A DNA stretch of 64,000 nucleotides from Pseudomonadota bacterium (GTDB lineage Bacteria > Pseudomonadota > Gammaproteobacteria > Burkholderiales > Rhodocyclaceae). The DNA is taken from the NCBI GenBank assembly GCA_008501585.1, contig QQUN01000020.1, forward strand, positions 31,713 through 95,712, written 5' to 3'. Position numbers and translations under genes: made by a program. The first letter of the stretch is position 1. Every line of letters starts with the position of its first letter. Below are positions 42,933 through 44,220 of the stretch, in pieces. The notes under the pieces are model-generated. The model saw only the letters and a program-made list of their open reading frames with translations. It had not been told where the DNA came from and searched no databases.

Positions 42933-44141
42933 ATGCCGGAAAAACTCGTCGTCAAGAATCTGTACAAGGTCTTCGGAGACCGGCCCAAGGAAGCGATGAA
43001 GCTCGTCGCCGAGGGCAAGGACAAGGCCACCATCTTCGCCCGCACCGGGCAGACCCTCGGCGTGATCGACGCCAGCTTCAGTGTCAATGAGGGTGAAATC
43101 TTCGTCATCATGGGGCTGTCCGGCTCGGGCAAGTCGACCCTGGTGCGCCTGCTCAACCGGCTGATCGAGCCGACCGCCGGGCAGGTGCTGATCAACGGCC
43201 GCGACATCGCGAAAATGGACGACACGGAGCTGCGCGAGCTGCGTCGCTCCGAGATCAGCATGGTCTTCCAGTCCTTCGCGCTGATGCCGCACCTGTCGGT
43301 GGTGGACAACACCGCCTTTGGCCTGGAGCTGGCCGGCATGGCCGAGGCCGAGCGCCGCGCGCGGGCCATGGTCGCACTCGAACAGGTTGGGCTGGCGGCC
43401 TGGGCCAACAGCTATCCGGACGAGCTCTCCGGCGGCATGCAGCAGCGCGTGGGTCTGGCCCGGGCGCTGGCCAACGATCCGCAGGTGCTGTTGATGGACG
43501 AGGCCTTCTCGGCGCTCGATCCGCTGATCCGCACCGAGATGCAGGACGAGCTGGTCAAGCTGCAGGCGGCAGACAAGCGCACCATCATCTTCATCTCGCA
43601 CGACCTCGACGAAGCCATCCGCATCGGCGACCGCATCGCCATCATGGAAGGCGGCGTGGTGGTGCAGGTCGGCACGGCCGAAGAGATCCTGCGCAACCCG
43701 GCCAACGACTACGTGAAATCCTTCTTCAAGGGGGTGGACGCCACCAGCATCCTGTCGGCCGCCGACATTGCGCGCAAGACCCAGGTCAACATCATCGACC
43801 ACCAGGGCATGGGCGTGCGCAGCGCCATCGAGCGCCTGCGCGCGCATGACCGCGAGTACGGCTACGTGGTCAGCCCCGACCAGAAGTTGATGGGCGTGGT
43901 TTCGCTCGACAGCCTGCAGAAGGCCGCCCGCGCCAGCGCCGACGCCAAGCTGCGCGACGCCTTCCTGCCCGAGCCGCATGTGCTCACCCCGGACACCCCG
44001 ATCAGCGAGCTCTATGAGCCGCTCACCCAGCATCCCTACGGCCTGCCGGTGGTGGACGACAAGGGCCGCTACCGCGGCGCGATCACGCGCAACACCATGC
44101 TCGAATTCCTGCATGCACAGAACACGGAGGACGCGGCATGA
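42933..44141 (+). CDS. proV: Glycine betaine/proline ABC transporter ATP-binding protein
   Basis: ProV powers osmoprotectant uptake with ProW and ProX. The ATG at 42933 (MPEKLVVKNLYKVFGDRPKEA) gives 402 residues. Walker A is GLSGSGKST, the signature LSGGMQQRVGLARA, and Walker B VLLMDEAFSALDPL. The N-terminal segment before the ATPase core is typical of ProV. The C-terminal ~125 residues hold two CBS domains (VRSAIERLRAHDREYGYVV, LPVVDDKGRYRGAITRNT), which sense ionic strength in related transporters. Its stop overlaps the small frame of the 84-bp element. Confidence 0.96.
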   Translation: MPEKLVVKNLYKVFGDRPKEAMKLVAEGKDKATIFARTGQTLGVIDASFSVNEGEIFVIMGLSGSGKSTLVRLLNRLIEPTAGQVLINGRDIAKMDDTELRELRRSEISMVFQSFALMPHLSVVDNTAFGLELAGMAEAERRARAMVALEQVGLAAWANSYPDELSGGMQQRVGLARALANDPQVLLMDEAFSALDPLIRTEMQDELVKLQAADKRTIIFISHDLDEAIRIGDRIAIMEGGVVVQVGTAEEILRNPANDYVKSFFKGVDATSILSAADIARKTQVNIIDHQGMGVRSAIERLRAHDREYGYVVSPDQKLMGVVSLDSLQKAARASADAKLRDAFLPEPHVLTPDTPISELYEPLTQHPYGLPVVDDKGRYRGAITRNTMLEFLHAQNTEDAA

Positions 44142-44220
44142 GCACGCTCGCACGGACGCCCGAAGGGCGCGCGACCCTCCCTTGGGGAGGATGTCGATTC
44201 ATCGACAGGAGGGCAGTAAA
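44138..44220 (+). repeat. Single copy of the three-hairpin intercistronic element
   Basis: CGCCC-GAA-GGGCG at 44157-44169, CCTCCC-TTG-GGGAGG at 44176-44190 and TGTCGAT-TC-ATCGACA at 44192-44207 are three successive hairpins. They are followed by AGGAGGG at 44207-44213, seven bases before the proW ATG. The same order occurs in the 84-bp tandem repeats at 57663. Confidence 0.85.

What the first reader, a model, noticed from the sequence alone, without database searches (positions are those of the whole stretch)
44138..44220. 84-bp three-hairpin intercistronic element, single copy between proV and proW
The gap between proV and proW is an open frame of 28 codons that starts by ATGA overlap with proV and stops by ATGA overlap with proW. 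The same DNA folds into three consecutive hairpins and ends in an ideal AGGAGG site. Compared with the copies at 57663, hairpin 3 changes TGTCGC/GCGACA to TGTCGA/TCGACA, a compensatory pair, and hairpin 2 keeps its stem while the loop varies. This suggests selection on RNA structure as well as on the frame. The ATGAGC found at each boundary could be a duplicated insertion target. I know of no described element with these properties.
Basis: partly seen in the sequence, partly recalled or inferred. Interest (0 to 1): 0.78.

Follow-up and report, generated by a model that had tools for sequence, protein, structure and literature searches.

The report
Start-codon-hopping repeat with built-in ribosome site
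Between two salt-stress transporter genes of a Denitromonas-type bacterium sits one copy of a small DNA repeat found at gene starts in many related bacteria; compared with six relatives that lack it, it lies exactly on the start codon of the second gene and carries a new ribosome-binding site and start codon, and it is likely a mobile piece of DNA whose short reading frame is predicted to be translated, so that inserting it would not silence the next gene.

Summary
The 83-bp element between proV and proW is one copy of a large family ("class A"), seen in records of 24 named genera (one label doubtful) of Betaproteobacteria. Three hairpins are supported by covariation in 86 copies (96.8% of cells paired; 89 two-sided changes against 21 in shuffles). 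At proV-proW, six genomes of the genus have an empty site and two a filled one; four further junctions also have empty sites. The old start codon, often with its old ribosome site, stays at the element's 5' end; the element adds a stronger ribosome site and a second start codon. In 96 of 110 arrays the upstream gene stops at the 5' ATGA. The spacing between the two starts is 2 mod 3 (stop/start coupling) or 0 mod 3 (in-frame fusion), never 1 mod 3 in 77 single copies. In 11 arrays, such as Achromobacter dapE, no start was found at the 3' end and the gene is open in frame with the leader. The closest described element is BRE (Hot 2011): it shares hairpins 1-2, but has another 3' end and lies mostly antisense to its genes. 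Start-codon placement and frame rule were not found in the papers searched. How it moves is unknown.

The parts
44126..44130 (+). old ribosome-binding site GGAGG of proW, left upstream of the element
   Evidence: same GGAGG and spacing in the empty sites of five genomes
44138..44140 (+). old proW start codon, now start of the 28-codon leader frame; ATGA overlaps the proV stop 44139-44141
   Evidence: five empty sites read ggaggacgcggc|ATGAGC or ATGAGT
44138..44220 (+). class A element, net insertion of 83 bp
   Evidence: present in G000 and G007, absent in G001, G003, G004, G006, G009 and G002; G005 and G008 have no proW match; model R1 101.7 bits (this copy helped to build R1)
44138..44224 (+). 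28-codon leader frame MSTLARTPEGRATLPWGGCRFIDRRAVK; its stop TGA overlaps the proW start
   Evidence: translation predicted, not shown
44142..44172 (+). hairpin 1 (stem 44142-44149/44165-44172, inner CGG/CCG stem; one A-C mismatch in this copy)
   Evidence: covariation
44176..44190 (+). hairpin 2 (CCTCCC/GGGAGG)
   Evidence: nearly invariant in A4, partly because the pattern used to collect most copies required it
44192..44207 (+). hairpin 3 (TGTCGA/TCGACA)
   Evidence: compensatory C-G to A-T
44207..44212 (+). new ribosome-binding site AGGAGG, 8 nt before the proW start
   Evidence: GGAGG at 8 nt in 67 of 90 arrays
44221..44223 (+). second start codon, present start of proW
57663..57913 (+). 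three tandem class A units (84, 84, 83 bp) between a 4-aminobutyrate transaminase-like gene and a PF03417 gene
   Evidence: the matching junction in G001 (L032) shows one unit
57663..57917 (+). 84-codon leader frame through the three units, stop TGA overlaps the downstream ATG at 57914
   Evidence: open frame ending at 57917; spacing 251, 2 mod 3

Best explanation
The 83-bp element at 44138-44220 is one copy of a repeat family that lies on the start codons of genes inside operons: the old start codon remains at its 5' end, it carries a second ribosome-binding site and start codon at its 3' end, and it is likely a non-autonomous mobile element whose 28-codon frame is predicted to be translated, so that ribosomes would be handed on to proW at the ATGA overlap. 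Shown by sequence: placement on the start codon against empty sites at five junctions, codirectional orientation, three covarying hairpins, a strong ribosome site 8 nt before the new start, and spacing that leaves the leader either stop/start-coupled (2 mod 3) or in frame (0 mod 3) with the next gene. Inferred: that the leader is translated, that the spacing is kept by selection for undisturbed expression, that the hairpins serve the RNA or the mobility step, and that an enzyme supplied in trans inserts the DNA next to ATG. The simplest reading is a selfish repeat shaped to be harmless at the one place where it lands.
For: Empty and filled sites: proV-proW filled in 2 and empty in 6 of the 8 genus genomes with a proW match. 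Of six further junctions queried, four gave empty sites; 13 of their 15 contiguous hits were aligned (3, 5, 4 and 1 loci) and in 11 of the 13 the start codon falls on the boundary. Orientation: of 111 class A arrays (identical flanks removed, non-composite), 105 have both neighbours codirectional (94 of 98 with confident frames); the upstream stop is exactly at the 5' ATGA in 96 of 110. Old ribosome site: GGAG, GAGG or AGGA just upstream of the 5' start in 49 of 111 against 4 of 111 in a control stretch; median anti-SD pairing -10.8 kcal/mol for the element, -6.2 for the old site, -3.0 for control (90 each). Spacing: 69, 18 and 3 of 90 arrays are 2, 0 and 1 mod 3; single copies 64, 13 and 0 of 77. 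Of the 69, 66 have the leader stop at the ATGA overlap and 3 stop up to 5 nt earlier; 17 of the 18 stay open in frame; the three 1-mod-3 arrays are 83+83 tandems with a stop at the inner ATGA. Composite copies: 12, 2 and 1 of the 15 of 18 with a placed start, the one being a 3-unit array with an inner stop. Stops inside 77 single copies, ends left out: frame 0 none, frame 1 two, frame 2 twenty-three. Of 16 arrays without a downstream start, 11 read in frame into the gene, among them Achromobacter dapE, where known DapE structures match from residue 31 of the fused frame. Covariation.
Against: No mover was found: Y1 transposase genes occur in 8 of 10 genomes of the genus (7 over the curated cut-off), but the best element match near 11 such loci is 16.9 bits, E 0.0066. 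The element has no terminal inverted repeats. Many copies share the length 83 or 81 by descent, so the mod-3 rule rests on nine distinct single lengths and a few composite or array lengths; orthologous copies in sister species were not removed. The sequence is GC-rich, so all frames are rather open. The 111 arrays were required to have NTGA or ATG at the 5' end; 12 of 141 arrays with the class A loop lack it, four of them with an ATG 3 bases further upstream. On the 94 pattern-scan arrays alone, chosen without regard to the ends, the figures are lower: 80 with NTGA, 85 codirectional, upstream stop at the ATGA in 71 of 92, start found in 69 of 87, spacing 52, 15 and 2 (singles 50, 11, 0). Of the 16 arrays without a start, 5 are not in-frame fusions, and one four-unit 0-mod-3 array has an inner stop. 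Two of the 13 aligned empty loci have gaps at the boundary (L323, L331). Wobble counts (29 G-U against 18 A-C) do not clearly say whether the fold acts as RNA or as DNA. Genes were called by a composition score of mine with position-GC values from memory.
Confidence: 0.72

Rival explanations
1. The element is a domesticated RNA regulator of the downstream gene: the 5' arm of hairpin 2 can pair either with its own 3' arm or with the ribosome site, making a translational switch (for proVWX perhaps responding to salt).
For: Between variants the 3' tail changes with the 5' arm of hairpin 2: CCTCC with GGAGG, CTCCCT with AAGGGAG, CCCCCT with AAGGGGG (read by eye), GCCCCC with GGGGGC in class B. Strong covariation.
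Against: The genes carrying it look unrelated (seen from the flanks, not systematically annotated), copies come and go between close species and tandem numbers vary, which does not look like one regulator. Hairpin 2 is likely the more stable of the two pairings (not computed). Rfam has no match in the window.
Confidence: 0.13
2. It is simply a member of BRE, a neutral variable tandem repeat of Betaproteobacteria, and its place at start codons only reflects where insertions are tolerated.
For: A model built from class A finds a copy of the tandem repeat beside lexA in a 4.0-Mb single-contig genome whose genus fits Bordetella (42.6 bits, E 1e-9), the locus at which Hot et al. report two BRE copies in B. 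pertussis. Length, copy number and tandem variation agree.
Against: BRE-type copies have another 3' end (GTGGGGGC, no ribosome site and start) and lie antisense to both neighbours in 28 of 39 confident arrays. Tolerance alone does not predict base-exact placement on the start codon.
Confidence: 0.1
3. A chance or local duplication in this genome, with no wider meaning.
For: Three of the four window copies are one tandem array.
Against: 118 matches in 10 of 10 genus genomes and matches across the order.
Confidence: 0.01

Closest known systems
BRE, beta-proteobacterial repeat element (Hot et al. 2011, PMC3110155; abstract, passages and section 11 read)
   Same: About 75-91 bp, high GC, multi-copy in Betaproteobacteria, tandem and variable in number, mostly between genes; hairpin 1 loop and hairpin 2 shared with class A
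   Different: 3' end GTGGGGGC instead of AGGAGGG and start codon; mostly antisense to the operon; in the passages I read, no insertion site, ribosome site, frame rule or structure is described
Rickettsia palindromic elements (RPE), as described in the review PMC10969869 (passages read)
   Same: Small repeat compatible with translation that fuses in frame with genes
   Different: About 150 bp, many inserted inside genes of Rickettsia; class A lies on start codons, brings its own ribosome site and is usually coupled rather than fused
MITEs and other small interspersed repeats (BOX, RUP, ERIC, NEMIS; general knowledge and names in the two papers above)
   Same: Short, folded, spread through genomes without own transposase
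   Different: No terminal inverted repeats here; placement on start codons with the start codon duplicated
REP/RAYT systems (recalled)
   Same: Hairpin repeats; Y1 transposases exist in the genus
   Different: The Y1 loci found are not flanked by class A copies

Membership tests
BRE | length about 75-91 bp, several copies per betaproteobacterial chromosome, tandem number variable | tested here: met
   83 bp; 12 model matches in the window's genome, class B included; three units here, one in G001
BRE | sequence of Bordetella copies, including the 3' end GTGGGGGC | tested here: not met
   hairpin 1 loop and hairpin 2 shared, 3' third different; the Bordetella identity of G493 is inferred from size and lexA locus, and the published BRE list could not be read
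BRE | orientation relative to flanking genes | tested here: not met
   class A sense in 105 of 111; BRE-type antisense in 28 of 39 confident arrays
MITE | terminal inverted repeats | tested here: not met
   ends AGCGCGCC and GGGTNGTNCAATG are not complementary (read)
MITE | target-site duplication | tested here: met
   start codon, up to ATGAGC, at both ends and once in empty sites
MITE | autonomous partner transposon sharing the ends | not tested
   only Y1 transposases in the genus were looked at
Rickettsia palindromic element | in-frame insertion inside reading frames | tested here: inconclusive
   11 in-frame N-terminal fusions and one copy inside a metE-like frame (L278), but most copies are stop/start-coupled; no Rickettsia sequence was compared
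REP/RAYT | repeat flanking its Y1 transposase gene | tested here: not met
   best match 16.9 bits, E 0.0066, near 11 Y1 loci
Rfam families | match above the curated score | tested here: not met
   none in the window; other loci not searched

The most novel reading that the evidence does not exclude
A new kind of mobile element specialised for start codons: it inserts next to ATG, keeps the old initiation site as the start of its own translated leader, ends in its own ribosome site and start codon, and keeps its length compatible with stop/start coupling or in-frame fusion, so that it can enter operons, even in front of dapE, without silencing them and can become the real N-terminus of host proteins.
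Probability: 0.5. Interest if true: 0.85.

Novelty: new variant of a known kind. Interest (0 to 1): 0.72.

Why it matters
If right, short repeats can be shaped to enter operons at the most sensitive base of a gene without harm, and they offer natural, repeated experiments on translational coupling: nearly the same 83 bases placed between dozens of gene pairs, with empty-site controls in sister species. It also gives a function-linked reading of a family related to BRE, described in 2011 without a function, warns that start codons in betaproteobacterial genomes may be annotated across a repeat, and points to a route by which new small frames and N-terminal extensions could arise.

Tried and rejected
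Chance duplicate: rejected. Known Rfam RNA: none in the window. Y1/RAYT partner: not supported. Spread on plasmids or phages: the window copy has no match in 72,556 plasmid records and a related copy (L007) none in 50,697 phage records, both at E 1e-3; a class B copy matches 5 plasmid records. Strand of the functional fold by wobble counts: 29 G-U against 18 A-C, inconclusive. A first regular expression for class B was wrong and found 3 arrays; corrected (52 arrays, 39 confident: 28 antisense, 5 sense, 6 mixed; three of the five sense ones are class A variants by eye). Row keeping: 178 arrays became 169 (short flanks dropped), 150 (identical flanks dropped), of which 111 class A non-composite, 18 composite, 12 class A loop without 5' start, 9 other. 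Empty-site query: seven sites, two of them the same junction; the L016 site gave no contiguous hit, the L027 site was not evaluated (its downstream boundary is doubtful), 2 of 15 contiguous hits at the four used junctions were not aligned (G008), and at the L005 site G006 and G009 have flanks about 650 bp apart; in G009 this is another reading frame without the element, G006 was not read. Literature: seven searches of the open-access library gave the BRE paper and a MITE review but, in the listings and passages I saw, no description of start-codon insertion; the 14-base strings of the hairpin 1 loop occur in no held paper; subscription papers and the BRE supplement could not be read.

Full report
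What is there. The window belongs to a genome of the genus Denitromonas by inference: contigs of two genus mates have the lengths of named Denitromonas contigs (273348, D. iodatirespirans; 114893, D. ohlonensis). Between proV and proW lies an element of 83 bp, 44138-44220. ProV stops at the TGA of its first ATGA, a 28-codon frame runs through it, and that frame stops at the TGA overlapping the proW start. A second site, 57663-57913, has three tandem units of 84, 84 and 83 bp between a 4-aminobutyrate transaminase-like gene and a PF03417 gene. Its total of 251 is again 2 mod 3, so the frame runs through all three units and stops at the ATGA of the next gene. The same junction in G001 shows one unit (L032).

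How common it is. A covariance model (R1) from 17 copies gave 118 matches at E <= 0.01 in 10 of 10 genomes of the genus, 2 to 37 per genome, 12 in the window's own. Of those twelve I read eight as class A (one truncated) and two as the related class B; two I did not read. Their titles bear 24 genus names, among them Aromatoleum, Thauera, Zoogloea, Azoarcus, Pseudothauera, Verticiella, Pigmentiphaga, Achromobacter, Castellaniella, Candidimonas, Variovorax, Rubrivivax, Piscinibacter and Thiomonas; the Comamonas label is doubtful. With a second model (R2, from 86 copies) 23 of 399 genomes drawn from the order and 49 of 207 of the family of Castellaniella have matches at E <= 1e-6; these counts include class B and used stricter filters.

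Structure. Three hairpins, with a CGG/CCG stem inside hairpin 1, are found by RNAalifold on 17 copies. On 86 copies 96.8% of cells are paired and 89 cells are changed on both sides, against 21 in shuffles (0 of 500 reach it) and at most 10 when partners are slid; 8 pairs have a two-sided change against 4.7 (3 of 500 reach it). The alignment was fitted to the model, which leans towards the structure. Hairpin 2 and the inner stem hardly vary, but most copies were collected by a pattern that fixes them. Free-energy z-scores of single copies are weak. G-U exceeds A-C 29 to 18, too little to say whether the fold acts as RNA or as DNA.

Insertion. Eight genus genomes have a proW match. The junction carries the element in G000 and G007 and none in G001, G003, G004, G006, G009 and G002; five of the empty ones read ggaggacgcggc|ATGAGC or ATGAGT, G002 reads ATGACC. 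Of six further junctions queried, four gave empty sites, 13 of whose 15 contiguous hits I aligned (3, 5, 4 and 1 loci). In 11 of the 13 the start codon of the empty gene falls on the boundary; L323 and L331 have gaps there. At the L005 site the downstream gene reads ATGTCC, so the shared piece is ATG rather than ATGAGC. I read the element as AGC...GGAGGGTNGTNCAATG, placed directly after an ATG.

What it leaves behind. Among 111 class A arrays (identical flanks and composites removed, NTGA or ATG required at the 5' end), 105 have both neighbours codirectional and 96 of 110 upstream genes stop exactly at the 5' ATGA; with confident frames on both sides 94 of 98 are codirectional. A ribosome-site-like motif lies just before the 5' start in 49 of 111 against 4 of 111 in a control stretch. 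The pairing energy to the 16S end is -10.8 kcal/mol for the element's site, -6.2 for the old one and -3.0 for control (medians of 90); the element's is the stronger in 75 of 90. Twelve of 141 arrays with the class A loop lack the 5' start in register, four of them with an ATG 3 bases upstream. On the 94 pattern-scan arrays alone, chosen without regard to the ends, 80 have NTGA, 85 are codirectional and 71 of 92 upstream genes stop at it.

The frame rule. From first to second start the distance is 2, 0 and 1 mod 3 in 69, 18 and 3 of 90 arrays, and in 64, 13 and 0 of 77 single copies. Of the 69, 66 stop at the ATGA overlap and 3 up to 5 nt before it; 17 of the 18 stay open, one four-unit array has an inner stop; the three 1-mod-3 arrays are 83+83 tandems with a stop at their inner ATGA. 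Single lengths seen are 56, 77, 78, 80, 81, 83, 84, 95 and 119. Single composite copies, which carry two more hairpins between hairpins 2 and 3, measure 131, 150, 152 or 155; of 18 composite arrays 15 had a placed start, 12, 2 and 1 of them at 2, 0 and 1 mod 3, the last a three-unit array with an inner stop. Frame 0 has no stop inside 77 single copies (ends left out), frame 1 two, frame 2 twenty-three. Of 106 arrays with a codirectional downstream gene, 16 had no start found; 11 of these read in frame into the gene, 4 lie in another frame and 1 has a doubtful frame call. In Achromobacter the frame precedes DapE: known DapE structures match from residue 31, and I found no start at the element's 3' end. 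Gene frames were called with a simple composition score of mine; orthologous copies in sister species were kept, so the counts are not independent events.

Relation to BRE. Hot et al. (PMC3110155; abstract, passages and section 11 read) described a repeat of about 90 bp with two copies beside lexA in B. pertussis. A 4.0-Mb single-contig genome of a genus that fits Bordetella has two tandem copies, 82 bp apart, beside lexA; R2 finds one of them at 42.6 bits. They are of the type I call class B: same hairpin 1 loop and hairpin 2, but another third hairpin and the end GTGGGGGC or nearly so. Class B lies antisense to both neighbours in 28 of 39 confident arrays; in 9 of the 28, by eye, it ends directly at an ATG when read in operon sense. 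Another genome of that genus also has copies that look like class A (L269, L279). So class A is a relative of BRE, not shown to be a plain member.

Mechanism. The best reading is a non-autonomous mobile repeat that lands on start codons and is built not to hurt: the upstream gene keeps its stop, the old start would drive a short leader, the new ribosome site and start serve the gene, and the length keeps ribosomes in register. Placement, orientation, covariation and spacing are shown; translation of the leader, selection as the cause of the spacing rule, and the mover are inferred. A switch between hairpin 2 and a pairing with the ribosome site is the main rival; the matching changes of arm and tail between variants keep it open.

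Noticed in passing
L065-L089, L280-L286 (class B arrays): A related repeat, class B, with GTGGGGGC end and a third hairpin that can be read with tandem G-A pairs; mostly antisense to its operon, in tandem runs of up to 6; fits BRE.
   Followed up: partly
L062 1978-2135 and other composite copies: Composite elements with two extra hairpins between hairpins 2 and 3, flanked by GGTGG and CCACC; a nested module that keeps the reading-frame rule.
   Followed up: partly
L226, L227, L246-L248, L279, L061 5673-5755: Variants in which the 5' arm of hairpin 2 and the ribosome-site tail change together (CTCCCT with AAGGGAG, CCCCCT with AAGGGGG).
   Followed up: partly
L278 (G495:C1:899459-899545): A class A-like copy without start codons inside a metE-like reading frame, apparently an in-frame insertion; the gene name is by eye.
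   Followed up: no
L120, L133: Contigs labelled Phycisphaerae carry an element copy with the same model score as the G001 copy, and L120 has the same flanks as printed; likely mis-binned.
   Followed up: no
L198 against L223: A contig labelled Comamonas badia is 97.6% identical over 3 kb to a genome that matches Castellaniella defragrans; label or contamination problem.
   Followed up: no
L340 about 860-1510 (G009): At the L005-type junction G009 has another reading frame of about 650 bp between the two genes instead of the element.
   Followed up: no
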